Assembly: GCF_006715225.1 (NCBI RefSeq)
Contig: NZ_VFMU01000001.1
Span: 930,001-994,000, forward strand
DNA length: 64,000 bases
Direction of reading: 5' to 3'
From: Arthrobacter sp. SLBN-112
GTDB taxonomy: Bacteria; Actinomycetota; Actinomycetes; Actinomycetales; Micrococcaceae
The stretch's first letter is position 1. Each line of letters begins with the position of its first letter. The position numbers were made by a program, and so were the translations under genes. Shown here piece by piece: positions 2,375 to 27,937 of the stretch. The notes under the pieces were generated by a model. It searched no databases. It was not told the DNA's origin and saw nothing but the letters and a program-made list of their open reading frames with translations.

Positions 2375-3538
2375 TCAGGCGGGAGTGCCGGCCATTTCCG
2401 CCTGCCGCTCCTCCACAAGGGTGGCAACGGCGGCAAACAGCGGGTGGCCAGGCGCCAGCCCGGTGATCCTTTCGGTGGCAGCGGTGGGGCTGGCCGAGCC
2501 GAGGATGGCTGCCAGCTCGGTGGCCTCGGCATCAGCGGGATCGTTGAACCGGAGCGCTGCCGCGATGGCACCCAGCAGGGCCTCCGGCACCACGCCGCGT
2601 TCTGCCAGTTCCGCCGCCGGGCCGATGAACCGCTCGTTCCGGCTCAGCTTCCGCAGCGGAGCCCGGCCCACGCGGTTGACGGTGTCCGGCAGGTACGGGT
2701 TGGAGAACCTGACCAGGATCTTCTGTACATAGGCTTCCTGCTCGTCGTTGCTGAACCCGTGCTTGGTCACCAGGAGCTGCTTGGTTTCCTCCAGCACCGC
2801 CCGGACATCTTCAGCCACATCCTGGTCCGCCATGGCGTCGGAGATCTTCTCCAGGCCCGCCTCGAACCCGAAGTACGCCGCCGACGCGTGGCCGGTGTTC
2901 ACGGTGAAGAGCTTCCGCTCGATATAGGGCGAGAGGTCGTCCACGAAGGTGGCACCGGGGATCGCGGGAGCGGAGTCACCGAAGGCGGTGCGGTCGATGA
3001 CCCATTCGTAAAAAGTCTCCACGGTGACGTCCAGGCCCTGGCCGGCTTCCTGGTTGGGCACGATCCGGTCGACAGCAGTGTTGGCGAACACCGCTTTGCC
3101 GTCCAGGACTGCCGCGGTGGCACCGGGCTGGGCCGCCACTTCCTTGGCCAGGAGGTCCGTGGCATTGATCGCGTTCTCGCAGGCCATGACCTGCAGGGGA
3201 GCCCGGCCGGGCTCCCGCGCAACGATGCCCTTGGCGATCACGGGCGCCACGAACTTCAGGATGTGCGGACCCACCGCCGTGGTGACGATGTCCGCCGTCG
3301 CGATCTCGGAGACGAGTTCCGCTTCCTGGGCGTTGGAGTTCAGCGCCCGGAAGTTGTCCACCGTCCGCACGGCGGGGTCCTCCCCCACCTCGTGCACGGC
3401 GTAGCTGTCCGCTTCCTTGAGCCGGTTGATCAGGTCCTCGGCCACGTCCGCGAACACCACCTCGTAGCCGGCGTCATGCAGGAGCAGCCCCACGAAGCCG
3501 CGGCCGATGTTGCCGGCCCCAAAATGTACTGCCTTCAC
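2375..3538 (-). CDS. mtlD: Mannitol-1-phosphate 5-dehydrogenase
   Basis: Oxidises mannitol 1-phosphate to fructose 6-phosphate with NAD+, feeding PTS-imported mannitol into glycolysis; cytoplasmic. The 387-residue protein begins with the MtlD nucleotide-binding signature MKAVHFGAGNIGRGFVGLLL. It carries the polyol-dehydrogenase core (VVTTAVGPHILK, ACENAINATD, NTGHASAAYFG) with the expected length. The start is GTG: the mtlA stop TAG and this GTG share one base (TAGTG), so translation is probably coupled. A strong terminator follows. Assignment is secure from both motifs and the mtlA neighbour. Confidence 0.97.
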   Translation of the reverse strand: MKAVHFGAGNIGRGFVGLLLHDAGYEVVFADVAEDLINRLKEADSYAVHEVGEDPAVRTVDNFRALNSNAQEAELVSEIATADIVTTAVGPHILKFVAPVIAKGIVAREPGRAPLQVMACENAINATDLLAKEVAAQPGATAAVLDGKAVFANTAVDRIVPNQEAGQGLDVTVETFYEWVIDRTAFGDSAPAIPGATFVDDLSPYIERKLFTVNTGHASAAYFGFEAGLEKISDAMADQDVAEDVRAVLEETKQLLVTKHGFSNDEQEAYVQKILVRFSNPYLPDTVNRVGRAPLRKLSRNERFIGPAAELAERGVVPEALLGAIAAALRFNDPADAEATELAAILGSASPTAATERITGLAPGHPLFAAVATLVEERQAEMAGTPA

Positions 3539-13267: not shown

Positions 13268-13304
13268 GGAAGCAACGCTACCCCCGTCCCCGCGTGGTTA
13301 AAGA

Positions 13305-13338
13305 AGCCGGCACCCCTGGTAATCCAGGGGTGCCGGCT
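13305..13338 (-). terminator. Hairpin after the peptide ABC operon
   Basis: A perfect 15-bp stem (AGCCGGCACCCCTGG and its complement) with a 4-base loop, 34 bp past the stop of the binding-protein gene. On the minus strand it is followed by TCTTTAA. A strong intrinsic terminator. Confidence 0.85.
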
Positions 13339-13372
13339 CTCCGCTACGCGGGCAAGGCCGCGGGAGTGGTGG

Positions 13373-23572: not shown

Positions 23573-23616
23573 CGGACACGCCCCGTGGTGGCGGATATCG
23601 CTGCGGGGGGTGTCCG
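23573..23616 (+). terminator. Terminator after universal stress gene
   Basis: CGGACACGCCCCG (23573-23585) pairs with CGGGGGGTGTCCG (23604-23616) with one mismatch, followed by TTCT. A smaller hairpin, CCGGCG-TAA-CGCCGG, lies just before it. Confidence 0.7.
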
Positions 23617-23683
23617 TTCTCACCGCTATATCACCGTTTCGGCTGCCGGCGCAAAGATAAAATTGAGGGAGGGCCCCAAAGGC

Positions 23684-24058
23684 GTGGACACTGACGAATC
23701 CACTCCCAGCGAAGGGCTCCCCTTGATTACCTTGCAGCGCCGCCAGCTCGTTGGCCACGACATCCTCCTGGCCCGCCACGGCAACCACATCTCCTCCATG
23801 CGGGTGGACCGCAGCAACGGCAGGGTTGTCGCCCTCCTTGATGACGGCACCCTGGACAGCGCCCCCAACCTCATCGCGCCGGGGCTTGAGCTTCCCCAGA
23901 CCGTGCGGAGCGTCCTGCGCGAGGACTGGAAGCTCCTGGGCGCCTGGGCCGGAATGGCCGCCCTCATGGGCGGCCTGATGACCGCAGCCGCGGTGGTTTT
24001 GGGAACCACGGCTGATCCTGCCCTGCTTGAGGCACTCACCGCCTACTCCGCGTACTAA
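23684..24058 (+). CDS. Small membrane protein of unknown function
   Basis: A protein of about 124 residues that I do not recognise. The first 75 residues are soluble (LITLQRRQLVGHDILLARHGNHISSMRVDRSNGRVVALLDDGTLDSAPNLIAPGLELPQTV). One membrane segment follows near the C-terminus (LLGAWAGMAALMGGLMTAAAVVLGT). The frame is open to 23585, but a TAAAAT -10 box (23658-23663) and a GAGGGAGG ribosome site fit a GTG start at 23684. It stands between the stress protein and the IS110 element and has its own terminator. Confidence 0.55.
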   Translation: MDTDESTPSEGLPLITLQRRQLVGHDILLARHGNHISSMRVDRSNGRVVALLDDGTLDSAPNLIAPGLELPQTVRSVLREDWKLLGAWAGMAALMGGLMTAAAVVLGTTADPALLEALTAYSAY

Positions 24059-24091
24059 TATGTAGTTGATTCTGTCAAGAGGGCCAGGGGA

Positions 24092-24127
24092 AAGCGGTCC
24101 CGGGTTGAGAGCCCGTGGGCCGCTTTT
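24092..24127 (+). terminator. Terminator after small membrane protein gene
   Basis: AAGCGG (24092-24097) pairs with CCGCTT (24120-24125), and the adjoining CC/GG and GGG/CCC runs extend the stem around a short loop; TTTTC follows. It marks the left edge of chromosomal sequence before the insertion element. Confidence 0.75.
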
Positions 24128-24393
24128 CTGATGTTGGCCATGGCGGGTTGGGCGTGGCCGCATCTTGTGTTGGTCCGGGGCGTCTGGTGGGGTTGGTCAG
24201 CGTGTCGTTGGCGACGTGGCGTTGTCAGACTAATATGCGCGGGTTGGTTACCGCAGGACGAGGTGTTCGGCTGGAGCGGATCGCTTCTCTAGGGTCGAGC
24301 GTGGCCCCATTTTGGGGTTACTCATAGTCGCGACGCGAGTTCACTCCACGCGCTGCCTTGTGGCCCAACCTGTTCCCAGACGTCCCGGACGTT

Positions 24394-25497
24394 TCATGGA
24401 GCTGGTTGGCTTGTGGCCTTCTGTGCTTCGCTGGCCAATGACCAGCACCAGCTTGCCAGTTCGCGTGCGATGGCGACGTTGGCGATTACAGGCCTTTTCC
24501 GGTGTTCCAGGTAGACCAGCCAGCGTTCGTGCAGCCGGCGGTTGCCGGCCTGTCCGCGGGTTCTGGCTGCGGGGGTTGCTGCTTCCCAGCGGGCACGCAT
24601 TTGCATGGAAGGCCGCGTGTAGGCTCGTCGGTGGTGCCAGGCCGCCTCAATCAGAAGTCGACGCGCGTGGGTGTTTCCGGTCTTCGTGATGCTGCCCTGG
24701 GACCGGTGCTGGCCGGACGAGTTTTCGCTGGGGACAAGGCCGAGGTAAGCACCGATGGTGCGCCCTGTGAAGCGGTTCCAGTCTCCGATCTCGACGGCCA
24801 GGCCGAATGCTGTGAGTGTGGAGATCCCGCGCAAGCATTCCAGTGCCCTGACGACGGGCGTGTATTCGCTTTCGTAGGCGATTTTAGTGATGGCTTTATC
24901 GAGGCGATCGCGCCGGTTCAGTGTTTCTGTGACGGTTTCGACGGCGAGGTCATAGGTCAGTTGCAGGGCCGGGGAGTCGAAATGCTGTTGATAGAGCCAG
25001 CCCATATGGGCTTGGGTCCAGGTGTCGCCGCTGTAGCGCAGACCTTGGCGCAGCAAAAGTTTGGAGACCCGGTGTCGGGCGCGCATCAGGTCCCCGCGGG
25101 TGTCTTCTCTTGCCCGCACCAGGTCCCGGGCCGCTTCCTGCCCGGGGCTCGGGACGGTGACCTCGGTGATTTGGTCGAGTTTGAGCAGCCGCGCCAGATG
25201 CAGGGCGTCGTTCTTGTCGGTTTTGACGCGGTCTCCGCTCGGTCGCTGAAGCTTGGAGGGGGCCGCGACCACGCAATCAATGCCTGCTGCCCGAAGTGCC
25301 CTGGCCAGGACAAAGCCAGTAGGACCTGCCTCATAGACCACTCGGGATGGGCCCGGCAGTGCTTTGATCCAGGCGAGAATTTCACCATGATCCGGTGTCA
25401 GCCGGTCCCGGAGTATCTCACCCGTCTGGCCGTCGATCGCGCAGGCGACGACCGTGAGCGCGTGGACATCCAGGCCGACGTGAGTACGCTCGTGCAT
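24394..25497 (-). CDS. IS110-family DEDD transposase/recombinase
   Basis: A 367-residue recombinase. The N-terminal RuvC-like DEDD site is complete: Asp10 (HVGLDVHAL), Glu56 (VVYEAGPTG), Asp94 and Asp97 (KTDKNDALHLARLL). A helical stretch follows, then the C-terminal Transposase_20 domain (LRGISTLTAFGLAVEIGDWNRF...YLGLVPSENSSGQHRSQGSITKTGNTHARRLL), which carries the catalytic serine of the family, probably Ser260 or Ser261. In IS621 this enzyme is guided by a bridge RNA from its own noncoding end. The ATG at 25497 has GGAGG eight bases upstream; that site lies in one arm of an inverted repeat and may be masked in the mRNA. Confidence 0.93.
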   Translation of the reverse strand: MHERTHVGLDVHALTVVACAIDGQTGEILRDRLTPDHGEILAWIKALPGPSRVVYEAGPTGFVLARALRAAGIDCVVAAPSKLQRPSGDRVKTDKNDALHLARLLKLDQITEVTVPSPGQEAARDLVRAREDTRGDLMRARHRVSKLLLRQGLRYSGDTWTQAHMGWLYQQHFDSPALQLTYDLAVETVTETLNRRDRLDKAITKIAYESEYTPVVRALECLRGISTLTAFGLAVEIGDWNRFTGRTIGAYLGLVPSENSSGQHRSQGSITKTGNTHARRLLIEAAWHHRRAYTRPSMQMRARWEAATPAARTRGQAGNRRLHERWLVYLEHRKRPVIANVAIARELASWCWSLASEAQKATSQPAP

Positions 25498-25598
25498 AGC
25501 TGGAACCTCCAAACTTCAATTGTGGCTCTGTCCCCAATGGATTAAGTCTGGGGAAAATCCACGTCGTCTTGAAGAGAAGGTTCCAGCCTCCAAAGCGA
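25498..25598 (-). promoter_or_regulatory. Structured transposase leader masking the ribosome site
   Basis: Reading toward the transposase, GCTGGAACCT near the RNA end pairs with AGGTTCCAGC beside the start (25578-25587 with 25499-25508). Inner matches (TTCAA/TTGAA, GTGG/CCAC, CCCC/GGGG) lie between. The pairing would cover most of the GGAGG ribosome site of the transposase, suggesting that its translation is held low. Confidence 0.45.
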
Positions 25599-25733
25599 CC
25601 AGGTCCTTCTGATAGAGGCCATCACCGGCCCGGTGACAGGATCCGGAACGCGTCGCTCCCACGATACAAGCGTCGAGCACTAAAGCTCGCGGTCCGGATC
25701 CGCCGGGCCAGTATGGACTCCAGAAGGACCTGG
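25599..25733 (-). ncRNA. Candidate IS110 bridge RNA
   Basis: This noncoding stretch 101 bp upstream of the transposase start shows nested pairing. The outer stem is a perfect 13 bp (25599-25611 with 25721-25733). A middle stem GGCCCGG/CCGGGCC (25627-25633 with 25703-25709) and an inner stem GGATCCGGA/TCCGGATCC (25639-25647 with 25693-25701) follow. An apical hairpin CGAGC-ACTAAA-GCTCG lies at 25674-25689. Between outer and middle stems lies an internal loop of 15 and 11 nt, the type of place where bridge RNAs hold target guides. Length and position match the family; transcription is not shown. An alternative pairing uses the palindrome at 25622-25636. Confidence 0.5.
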
Positions 25734-25797
25734 CCCCCTTCCCCTCAAGGCGCCCACCCATATCGTCTAGGACGGGCGCATCCCGGCAACGGTGCGT

Positions 25798-26427
25798 TCA
25801 GGCCAGCAGCAAGCCCTGCAGCAGCCACCAGATTCCGGCCATCACCATCCCGCCGAACAGCGAGCCGGCCACCACCTGCGCAGGGGTATGAGCCCTCAGG
25901 ACCACGCGTGACCAACTGACCGCGGGAACCAGGAGCAGCAGCGGCGCCCAGGCGGGGCCGAGCATCAGCACCAAGACGACGGCGGCGCAGGACACGGCAG
26001 CGGCGTGGCCGCTCATTTTCCAGAAAGGACTGACGGCCGCCAGGACGGCTACTCCGCCCACCACCGCCAGGACCATCGCGGTCACACTCCGGGGCGCGTC
26101 CACAGCGTTCAGCACCAGCAAACCCACCGCAATGCAGCCCAGCGCCATGAGGAGTACAGGGGCGCGCTGCTTCCGGTCGCTCACGTGGTGGTCGGTGACC
26201 TTCCCCAGCCGGACCAGCACCAGCAACACCAGGAGCGGAACCACACACACAAAAAGTGCCGCCAGTGCCCCGTAACCGATGGTCCTGGGGAATCCGGCCT
26301 CCGGCAAGGGGCTGATCAGCAGTTGGATGCTGACCACCACCGGGGGCTGGAGGACCTCCGTCAGCCACTTGGCGGTGTGGTTCCTGACCCGGATGGAGCC
26401 GCTGCTTACCGTCACGTCCTTGTCCAA
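25798..26427 (-). CDS. PAP2-like membrane phosphatase
   Basis: A polytopic membrane protein of about 209 residues. It carries two parts of the PAP2 phosphatase signature: KMSGHAAAVSCAAVV (SGH motif) and SWSRVVLRAHTPAQVVAGSLFG (R-x5-H-x3-D-like, here with Gln for the last acid). The first motif is only loosely matched (DRKQRAPVLL). Relatives remove phosphate from undecaprenyl pyrophosphate or phosphatidate. It begins about 20 bp after the E2 gene and may be transcribed with the dehydrogenase operon. The start (TTG 26427 or GTG 26415) is uncertain. The IS110 element lies just past its stop. Confidence 0.7.
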   Translation of the reverse strand: MDKDVTVSSGSIRVRNHTAKWLTEVLQPPVVVSIQLLISPLPEAGFPRTIGYGALAALFVCVVPLLVLLVLVRLGKVTDHHVSDRKQRAPVLLMALGCIAVGLLVLNAVDAPRSVTAMVLAVVGGVAVLAAVSPFWKMSGHAAAVSCAAVVLVLMLGPAWAPLLLLVPAVSWSRVVLRAHTPAQVVAGSLFGGMVMAGIWWLLQGLLLA

Positions 26428-26446
26428 GACCCCTGGCCCTAAGGCC

Positions 26447-27937
26447 CTAGTCCAGGAGGAGCGCGGGCTCTTCCAGGATGGCTGCGACGTCGGCCATGAA
26501 ACGGGCAGACAGGTCACCATCCACCACGCGGTGGTCGAAGGACCCTCCCAGCGTGGTGATCCAGCGCGGAATCACCTCACCGTCCAGGACCCACGGCTTC
26601 TGCTTGATGGTTCCGAAGGCAACGATGGCCACCTCGCCCGGGTTGATGATGGGCGTGCCCGTGTCGATGCCCAGGGCGCCGATGTTGGTAATGGTGAGTG
26701 TGCCGCCCTGCATCTCGGCCGGCTGGGTCTTCCCTGCCCGGGCGGTGGTGGCCAGGTTGTTCAGCGCCAGCGCCAGCTCCTTCAGGGAGAGGTCCTGGGC
26801 GTTCTTGATGTTGGGGACCATCAGTCCGCGCGGGGTTGCAGCGGCAATGCCGAGGTTCATGAAGTGCTTGACATGGATTTCAGCGGTGTCGGAGTCCTCG
26901 TTGTCCACCCATGAGGCATTCACGCTGGGGTTCCGGGCGGCCGCCCAGATGACGGCCTTGGCCAGGATGAGCAGCGGCGAGACCTTGACCCCCTCGAAGT
27001 CCCGGGAAGCCTTGAGCCGTTTGACGAATTCCATGGTGCGGCTGGCATCGACGTCCACGAAGATGCTGACATGCGGCGCGGCGAAGGCGGATTCCACCAT
27101 CGCCTTTGCCGTGGCCTTGCGGACGCCCTTGACCGGGATCCGCTCCACGCGCTGGTCCTGCGGCTTACCGGCCTTGCCCCAGAAACCCTCTGCCTTGTCC
27201 AGTTCGGCGTCGCGCTGCGCCTGGTAGCTGACCAGGTCCTCGCGCGTCACCTCGCCCCGTGAACCGGTAGCAACAACATCCGCGAGGTCGATGCCGAGAT
27301 CCCGGGCGATCTTGCGCACCGGCGGCTTGGCCAGCACCCGGTTGACCAGGCCCGTAATGGTGCCGCCAAGGGTGGGCCGGTAGTCGACGGCGGCGGGTTC
27401 GGTAGCAGCAGTTACAGCGGCGGGCGTGTGCGGCTGGACGGGCTCGACCTGCGGGGCGTTGACCGTCACGGCGGTGGCGGGCGTGGTCTTCCGCGGGCGT
27501 CGCTTGACGGCATCGGCTTTGGGGCCGGAACCCACCAGCGGACCGGCGGCCGGGGCACTTCCACCAGTGCCGCCGTCGGCCGCCGTGTCCTCTGCCGCGT
27601 CCTCCGGGAGCTTGCCGTAAAGCGGCTGCACCGGCGTTTCACGGGCAACGGGCGTCTCCGGCGCGCGGACGTCTGCCGGCGTCGGATCGCCGGAGACGTC
27701 GTCGCTGACGCTGATGATGGCGGTGCCGACGTCCACGGTCACCCCTTCGTCCACCAGCAGTTCGGTGACCGTCCCGGCAAACGGGGAGGGCAGTTCCACG
27801 ATGGACTTGGCGGTTTCAATCTCGCAAAGGACGTCATTGATGGCGACGGCGTCGCCCGGCTTGACCTTCCAGGAGACGATTTCCGCCTCGGTGAGGCCCT
27901 CGCCGACATCAGGCAGGTTGAACTTGTTCAGGGTCAT
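26447..27937 (-). CDS. 2-oxoacid dehydrogenase E2, dihydrolipoamide acyltransferase
   Basis: Core enzyme that moves the acyl group from E1 to coenzyme A. The 496-residue protein has one lipoyl domain (lipoyl Lys44 in [12 protein letters not shown]), a long Pro/Ala/Thr linker, the E3-binding domain ([29 protein letters not shown]) and the catalytic domain ending in SFDHRVVDG. Gene order E1-alpha, E1-beta, E2 matches the branched-chain keto acid dehydrogenase of actinobacteria (as in Mycobacterium), although annotators often call such genes pdhABC. It starts 7 bp after the E1-beta stop. No E3 gene (lpd) is in the window. Confidence 0.95.

What the first reader, a model, noticed from the sequence alone, without database searches (positions are those of the whole stretch)
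25599..25733. Nested hairpin upstream of an IS110 transposase looks like a bridge RNA
Three perfect inverted pairs are nested in the noncoding right flank: 13 bp, 7 bp and 9 bp, with an internal loop of 15/11 nt and an apical hairpin. IS110 recombinases such as IS621 are known to use a bridge RNA from this flank whose internal loops guide DNA target and donor choice. The DEDD residues and serine of the partner enzyme are intact, so this may be a working, not yet described RNA-guided recombinase. The guide loop strands would be GAGTCCATACT and GGTGATGGCCTCTAT.
Basis: partly seen in the sequence, partly recalled or inferred. Interest (0 to 1): 0.8.

Follow-up and report, generated by a model that had tools for sequence, protein, structure and literature searches.

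The report
Leader hairpin of RNA-guided transposon
The hairpin is real but is not the guide RNA: the jumping gene's likely guide RNA lies on the other side of its recombinase gene, and the hairpin is a separate conserved structure in the leader of the recombinase message.

Summary
The element (24057-25768, 1712 bp, ends confirmed by an empty site) is an IS110-family insertion sequence, but its bridge RNA lies downstream of the transposase (24357-24196, minus strand). There the right target guide matches insertion sites at 83 of 92 positions in 23 elements (41 permuted) and 123 of 140 in 35 further elements (60 permuted). Donor guides track the element's ends. The hairpin is still a genuine structured RNA: 13 of 28 pairs carry compensatory changes, and the tnp-sense strand folds better in 32 of 34 copies. 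It lies in the tnp leader, upstream of a more widespread hairpin that buries the ribosome-binding site; it is present in 32 of 33 tree rows of two clades and not found in a sister clade (0 of 21). I read it as a brake on transposase expression, which is inferred. Against: no RNA data, and this copy's own right guide fits its site poorly. New variant of a known kind: downstream bridge RNA, IS1111-type guide order, only a 5-bp subterminal repeat.

The parts
24057..25768 (-). Whole insertion sequence, 1712 bp; core dinucleotide AG (minus strand) at 25767-25768 and again at 24055-24056
   Evidence: Ends from divergence points of relatives; empty site TACTAGGACGGGCG in a same-genus genome (L066: 96% identical over the gene on one side, 94% on the other)
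25596..25735 (-). Leader hairpin 1 (the finding): conserved structured RNA, about 140 nt, between the left terminus and the tnp RBS hairpin
   Evidence: 13 of 28 pairs with change on both sides, 42 such cells vs 12.8 +- 3.5 shuffled (14 copies); sense strand folds better in 32 of 34 copies; model R1 119.8 bits, though the model was built partly from it
25499..25588 (-). Leader hairpin 2: pairs the Shine-Dalgarno GGAGG (25506-25510) of tnp in a stem
   Evidence: 9 of 13 consensus pairs with compensatory changes over 25 elements; GGAGG invariant
24394..25497 (-). tnp, IS110-family DEDD recombinase, 367 aa; D10, E56, D94, D97 and S261 intact (catalytic roles recalled from family knowledge)
   Evidence: PF01548 and PF02371, NF033542 220.8 bits, conservation in relatives, fold match to IS621 and ISCro4
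24196..24357 (-). Bridge RNA in the right end, downstream of tnp: target-binding loop, then donor-binding region
   Evidence: Consensus structure and covariation; guide matches
24326..24333 (-). Right target guide TCGCGACT (ends in the core complement CT); matches this copy's own site only at the core and one further base, but fits L007, which has the same guide, at all four tested bases
24289..24294 (-). Left target guide CCCTAG; the target here is TCCTAG
24257..24261 (-). Right donor guide TCGTC, complementary to GACGA of the left terminus AGACGATATG
24230..24237 (-). Left donor guide CATATTAG, same letters as the right terminus
24091..24127 (-). GC-rich stem-loop near the right terminus, terminator-like by shape but without a long T run
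   Evidence: sequence; stem-loops of other sequence at this place in relatives seen by eye; not listed by the consensus scan
24073..24078 (-). TTGACA, candidate -35 box of a promoter formed when the ends join in a circle
   Evidence: Exact TTGACA 18-19 nt from the terminus in 25 of 27 right ends, but those ends were found with a pattern that already asked for TTGACA with at most one mismatch, so this is only partly independent
23585..24058 (+). 157-aa ORF whose TAG stop codon was the insertion site; it now ends in TAA supplied by the element

Best explanation
The locus is a complete, probably functional IS110-family insertion sequence guided by a bridge RNA in its right end, not by the reported hairpin. 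Shown by sequence comparison: ends, core AG, scarless insertion, two target guides, two donor guides and a covarying target loop. The reported hairpin is a conserved structured RNA in the 5' leader of the tnp message, followed by a second hairpin that buries the tnp ribosome-binding site. Inferred: when the ends join in a circle, a junction promoter (TTGACA in the right end) transcribes leader, tnp and bridge RNA as one message, and the leader hairpins hold transposase synthesis down. The confidence given is for the shown part; for the role of hairpin 1 as a brake it is about 0.45.
For: Bridge RNA: right target guide matches 83 of 92 vs 41.2 +- 5.3 permuted (23 elements, 0 of 5000) and, in 35 elements not used to find it, 123 of 140 vs 60.2 +- 5.5; one element per distinct guide (24, one of them without a site) 81 of 96 vs 29.1 +- 4.7, 0 of 10000. 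Left target guide 59 of 69 vs 44.0 +- 2.7 (one of the three positions is fixed by the search patterns, in permuted pairs as well). Donor: the base after AGACG at the left end has its complement in the RNA in 21 of 23 and 28 of 28 elements, with A, G and C all seen; the T/C of ATAT[T/C]AG agrees in 23 of 23 and 28 of 28. Structure. Hairpin 1; 10 distinct places in 6 of 295 family genomes, 9 of them directly upstream of a tnp relative; sense strand favoured in 32 of 34 copies against 4 of 17 control windows. RBS burial. ISPpu9, another IS110-family element, has a 244-nt tnp 5'-UTR thought to bury the RBS, and weakening mutations raised a reporter 26-fold (PMC8450116; abstract, section 16 and passages). 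More than one full-length copy per genome in 1 of 28 genome-clade combinations of the hairpin clades and 5 of 8 of the clade without it (counted by hand; Fisher 8e-4).
Against: No RNA data: transcript, promoter and attenuation are inferred. The consensus scan found no promoter in the integrated element, and by eye the -10 box at the joined ends is weak. This copy's own right target guide matches its site only at the core and one base, and its right-end RNA scores below the shuffled mean (5 against 5.65). The donor stems do not vary, the stem closing the donor loop is not resolved, and the consensus fold pairs two bases of the right donor guide. The T variant of the left donor guide is confined to the window's close relatives, so it may be one event. 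The copy-number contrast is confounded with clade, and draft assemblies may undercount copies. The clade without hairpin 1 keeps the bridge RNA, so the hairpin is not essential.
Confidence: 0.9

Rival explanations
1. The reported hairpin itself is the bridge RNA.
For: Position upstream of tnp is where the IS110 group carries its bridge RNA (PMC11208160, passages); it is a large structured RNA favoured on the tnp-sense strand.
Against: Loop strands match own targets 4.43 vs 4.91 shuffled and the whole hairpin 4.86 vs 5.68, while the right-end RNA gives 6.71 vs 5.65 (7 elements). Its motifs are kept in 34 of 34 copies within two mismatches while targets differ. Relatives without it carry the right-end RNA.
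Confidence: 0.03
2. Hairpin 1 is an RNase III-type processing site or protective 5' structure for a long message from which the bridge RNA is cut.
For: Long near-continuous helix in single-sequence folds. For IS1111 elements the short RNA is thought to come from a longer form (PMC11187229, passages).
Against: The clade without it keeps the same kind of bridge RNA. No processing data.
Confidence: 0.15
3. Hairpin 1 yields a separate stable small RNA that acts in trans, as Asr9 and Ssr9 do for ISPpu9.
For: Precedent of two flanking small RNAs in ISPpu9 (PMC8450116, abstract and section 16).
Against: No promoter-like site in 24000-25850. The favoured strand is sense, whereas Asr9 is antisense.
Confidence: 0.15
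4. Hairpin 1 is a passenger palindromic repeat or MITE that landed in the left end.
For: A different long hairpin sits at the same place in L013, L019 and L029, and a 45-52 bp part of that one recurs elsewhere on plasmids. Model R1 also gave weak short matches elsewhere, such as window 13304-13340 (21.6 bits, E 0.0044), which I take as chance.
Against: All 10 distinct R1 places in 295 family genomes but one (L064, a decayed-looking copy) lie at a tnp relative; in the order 2 of 297 genomes matched, both already seen; blastn of the window hairpin found nothing on plasmids or phages at E 0.01. Stems covary across copies whose tnp is as low as 51% identical.
Confidence: 0.08

Closest known systems
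IS621 / ISCro4 bridge recombinases (IS110 family)
   Same: Recombinase fold (Foldseek prob 1.00, TM-score to the target 0.69-0.76); dinucleotide core; target and donor guides, a left and a right one each (definitions from PMC11208160 passages)
   Different: Bridge RNA downstream of tnp, right guide before left guide, core AG rather than the CT of IS621, about 19% identity
IS1111 group with seekRNA (ISEc11, ISPa11, ISKpn4)
   Same: RNA in the downstream noncoding region; complement of the top strand precedes the bottom-strand match (PMC11187229 passages)
   Different: Subterminal repeat is 5 bp here (5 bp in 33 of 53 elements, range 0-8) rather than the 7-17 bp reported for IS1111 (PMC11208160 passage)
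IS110-family elements with a downstream noncoding region (a subgroup mentioned by Siddiquee et al., PMC11187229 passages)
   Same: Probably the nearest described category: short or imperfect subterminal repeat with a 3' noncoding region
   Different: No named element was compared here; ISfinder was not available
ISPpu9 (IS110 family) leader control
   Same: Long tnp 5'-UTR thought to bury the RBS; AG repeat at the junctions (PMC8450116, abstract, section 16 and passages)
   Different: Sequences were not compared; an extra conserved hairpin of about 140 nt lies upstream here, and no antisense promoter was found

Membership tests
IS110-family bridge-RNA recombinase element | DEDD RuvC-like domain and Tnp domain with nucleophilic serine | tested here: met
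   D10 76 of 76, E56 75 of 77, D94 80 of 81, D97 80 of 81, S261 81 of 83 in relatives. Roles recalled
IS110-family bridge-RNA recombinase element | Recombinase fold like IS621 | tested here: met
   (mean pLDDT 84.3, pTM 0.80; 257-273 around S261 below 50)
IS110-family bridge-RNA recombinase element | Noncoding RNA whose guides match target and donor | tested here: met
IS110-family bridge-RNA recombinase element | Target and donor guides each in an internal loop of the RNA | tested here: inconclusive
   Target loop lies between covarying stems; donor stems never vary and the closing stem is not resolved
IS110-family bridge-RNA recombinase element | Precise insertion at a short core | tested here: met
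   One empty site
IS110-family bridge-RNA recombinase element | RNA expressed and bound by the recombinase | not testable with these tools
   Needs experiment
IS110 group (bridge RNA in left end) | Bridge RNA upstream of tnp | tested here: not met
IS1111 group | Bridge RNA in right end | tested here: met
IS1111 group | Right guide (complement of top strand) precedes left guide | tested here: met
IS1111 group | Subterminal inverted repeats of 7-17 bp | tested here: not met
   5 bp in the window element; 7 or more in 5 of 53 elements
ISPpu9-type leader control | tnp 5'-UTR folds over the RBS | tested here: met
   By prediction and covariation only
ISPpu9-type leader control | Antisense small RNA against the 5'-UTR | tested here: inconclusive
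   no promoter-like site in 24000-25850 on either strand, by a simple consensus
Any Rfam RNA family | Match above the gathering score | tested here: not met
   (23900-26600): best is MIR918, 26.8 bits against a cutoff of 268

The most novel reading that the evidence does not exclude
A lineage of RNA-guided insertion sequences that spares the genes it enters: its guides pick CTAG at gene ends, so the interrupted TAG stop is rewritten as TGA or TAA by the element's own right end. Some clades add a dedicated leader RNA of about 140 nt that brakes the recombinase and keeps copy number near one.
Probability: 0.3. Interest if true: 0.7.

Novelty: new variant of a known kind. Interest (0 to 1): 0.5.

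Why it matters
It gives a testable natural guide set (24 distinct right target guides, 23 with a site) for a bridge recombinase with downstream RNA, IS1111-type guide order and only a short subterminal repeat, so it sits between the two described groups. It also points to a conserved leader RNA whose absence in a sister clade makes its effect on transposition directly testable. And it shows that a strong hairpin beside a bridge recombinase need not be the bridge RNA.

Tried and rejected
Rejected: the left-end hairpin as bridge RNA. Rejected: my own first idea of the right target guide, next to the left guide; it seemed to fit L007 and L044 by eye, but the guide proved to lie further 5'. Rejected: pairing between the bridge RNA (AACCCGCG) and the leader (CGTGGGTT); short, of a kind that a rough mental estimate puts within chance, and not clearly covarying; no test was run. 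Rejected: MIR918, a chance match of a long hairpin. Led nowhere: viral contigs gave no relative; the sequence search of solved structures gave one weak match, a DNA polymerase, so folds were compared instead.

Stop codons: the flank frame that would end at the TAG is the longest in 34 of 55 right flanks (p 1.4e-5) but 23 of 53 left flanks (p 0.08); repeated targets inflate this, and the TGA/TAA at the right end was partly built into the search pattern, which asked for ACATAT[T/C]AG with at most two mismatches. One search was a first version of that test with wrong orientation for part of the loci; its counts are not used. One search stopped with an error after the counts cited, so its per-position table was not obtained.

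Dropped rows: of 45 loci with a transposase match examined, 31 had the RNA anchor, and 23 of these had both ends and both guides. In one search, 51 new loci, 47 with the anchor; 8 were dropped as duplicates, and of the remaining 43, 35 had right guide and flank and 27 left guide and flank. One of the 35 (L118) has no right flank and counts as misses; some of the 35 share a target. One search used 34 of 39 distinct R1 sense matches (L020, L060, L063, L064 and L139 left out). L065 is a truncated copy of the window element and was set aside. L089 was first labelled by blast similarity only; one search then found no R1 match in it. L047 holds little over 200 bases upstream of tnp, so a hairpin could be cut off there.

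Full report
Observation. The nested inverted pairs are present exactly as described, and the minus strand of 25499-25780 folds far better than shuffled sequence (z -8.0, 0 of 200; a second hairpin lies in the same stretch). The two strands called guide loops are mostly paired with each other in that fold.

What the element is. The gene at 25497-24394 (minus) is an IS110-family recombinase: PF01548 and PF02371, NF033542 at 220.8 bits. D10, E56, D94, D97 and S261 are conserved in nearly all relatives (catalytic roles recalled). A predicted model (mean pLDDT 84.3, with a weak stretch at 257-273) matches IS621 and ISCro4 complexes best. Relatives diverge from the window at about 25768 on one side and 24056 on the other. 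A same-genus genome (L066) has the empty site TACTAGGACGGGCG, with flanks 96% and 94% identical. The element is therefore 1712 bp, with core AG on the minus strand, inserted in the TAG stop of the ORF at 23585-24058, which now ends in TAA.

Where the bridge RNA is. The most widely conserved noncoding part is downstream of tnp, 24357-24196 minus. In its consensus fold 8 of 30 pairs have changes on both sides, 32 such cells against 11.3 +- 3.1 shuffled. The target guides lie in an internal loop between covarying stems. The donor region is less certain: its stems never vary, the closing stem is not resolved, and the fold pairs two bases of the right donor guide. The order along the RNA is right target guide, left target guide, right donor guide, left donor guide. 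In 23 elements the right target guide matches the insertion site at 83 of 92 non-core positions against 41.2 +- 5.3 when guides and sites are permuted; the left target guide matches 59 of 69 against 44.0 +- 2.7, one of its three positions being fixed by the search patterns. In 35 further elements, not used to find the guides though some share targets, the right guide matches 123 of 140 against 60.2 +- 5.5; with one element per distinct guide (24, one without a site) it is 81 of 96 against 29.1 +- 4.7. At the donor, the base after AGACG in the left terminus has its complement in the RNA in 21 of 23 elements (exceptions L016 and L019) and 28 of 28 new ones; the whole 5-mer fits in 19 of 23, four having one mismatch. 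The T or C of ATAT[T/C]AG in the right terminus agrees in 23 of 23 and 28 of 28, but the T form is confined to the window's close relatives. Against the reading: this copy's own right target guide, TCGCGACT, matches its site only at the core and one further base, while L007, with the same guide, matches all four tested positions. The copy may have used a suboptimal site.

What the reported hairpin is. In seven elements with the hairpin and a known target, its loop strands match their own target no better than shuffled sequence (4.43 against 4.91), while the right-end RNA does better (6.71 against 5.65), though not for the window copy itself (5). The hairpin is nonetheless a real RNA structure. 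Over 14 copies 13 of 28 pairs show changes on both sides, with 42 such cells against 12.8 +- 3.5 shuffled, and sliding the partners removes most of the signal (the structure was derived from the same alignment). The tnp-sense strand folds better in 32 of 34 copies, against 4 of 17 control windows from tnp. All 34 keep the motifs CCATTNTCGCC and GGCGNTGATG within two mismatches. A covariance model found 12 places in 6 of 295 family genomes, two of them the opposite strand of others; of the 10 distinct places 9 lie directly upstream of a tnp relative and one (L064) looks like a decayed copy. In the order, 2 of 297 genomes matched, both already seen. blastn of the window hairpin found nothing on plasmids or phages, although an Arthrobacter plasmid relative (L088) carries it by the model. 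Weak short matches elsewhere, such as window 13304-13340 (21.6 bits), I take as chance.

Distribution. On a tree of 71 tnp rows (L065, a truncated copy of the window element, set aside) the hairpin is in 16 of 16 rows of the clade at about 51-56% identity, in 16 of 17 of the window's clade (exception L048), and found in 0 of 21 of the 66-70% clade (one of these, L047, has little upstream sequence) and 0 of 14 of the mostly mycobacterial clade, three of which (L013, L019, L089) have a different long hairpin at the same place (labels). Taking identity bands as clades, the hairpin clades have more than one full-length copy in 1 of 28 genome-clade combinations, the clade without it in 5 of 8 (counted by hand; Fisher 8e-4). 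This fits a brake on transposition but is confounded with clade, and draft assemblies may undercount copies.

The second leader hairpin. Directly upstream of the start codon a stem buries the invariant GGAGG; 9 of 13 consensus pairs show compensatory changes over 25 elements. TTGACA stands 18-19 nt from the right terminus in 25 of 27 right ends, though the pattern that found these ends already asked for TTGACA with at most one mismatch. It suggests a junction promoter in the circle, as reported for IS621 and ISEc11 (PMC11208160 and PMC11187229, passages). No promoter-like site was found within the integrated element. ISPpu9, another IS110-family element, has a tnp 5'-UTR thought to bury the RBS and lower translation (PMC8450116, abstract, section 16 and passages).

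Mechanism. Shown by sequence: ends, core, guides, a covarying target loop, two covarying leader hairpins, a buried RBS. Inferred: a circle-borne message carries leader, tnp and bridge RNA; the leader hairpins keep transposase low; the bridge RNA is released from the 3' part. The role of hairpin 1 as a brake is my best guess, about 0.45; processing site and separate small RNA are the main rivals.

Stop codons. In 61 elements the right end supplies TGA (56) or TAA (5) on the opposite strand, which the search pattern partly presupposes. The flanking frame that would end at the TAG is the longest in 34 of 55 right flanks (p 1.4e-5) but only 23 of 53 left flanks (p 0.08), and repeated targets inflate this. 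The window copy is a directly shown case.

Known or new. The mechanism is that of known bridge RNAs. RNA location and guide order are as described for IS1111, but the subterminal repeat is 5 bp, so I do not file it as IS1111; the RNA location sets it apart from the typical IS110 group. No Rfam family matches. The paper searches (listings, capped) showed no description of this element or of hairpin 1; most subscription journals, preprints and ISfinder were not covered.

Noticed in passing
G000:C1:1450158-1450616 (locus L001): The same genome holds a second, different IS110-family gene (open frame 396 aa).
   Followed up: no
L013:2215-2420, L019, L029, L089: Relatives from Rhodococcus, Prescottella and one Pseudarthrobacter carry a different, longer hairpin at the same place in the leader; a 45-52 bp part of it recurs on other plasmids, in the two IS110-bearing cases looked at 319 and 430 bp downstream of another IS110 gene (L085, L086).
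   Followed up: partly
L036 around 3139-3201: The right-end RNA of a Rhodococcus maanshanensis copy is interrupted inside the left donor guide by about 30 extra bases.
   Followed up: no
G208 (L046, L052, L124-L127): Six copies in one genome of the hairpin-less clade; all six have AG followed by NTGTACT on the right.
   Followed up: partly
23585-24058: The ORF next to the element lost its own TAG stop and now ends at the same codon in TAA supplied by the element (compare L066).
   Followed up: yes
L007: 83% DNA identity to the element but only 68% protein identity in the best segment, so its transposase frame may be shifted in part.
   Followed up: no
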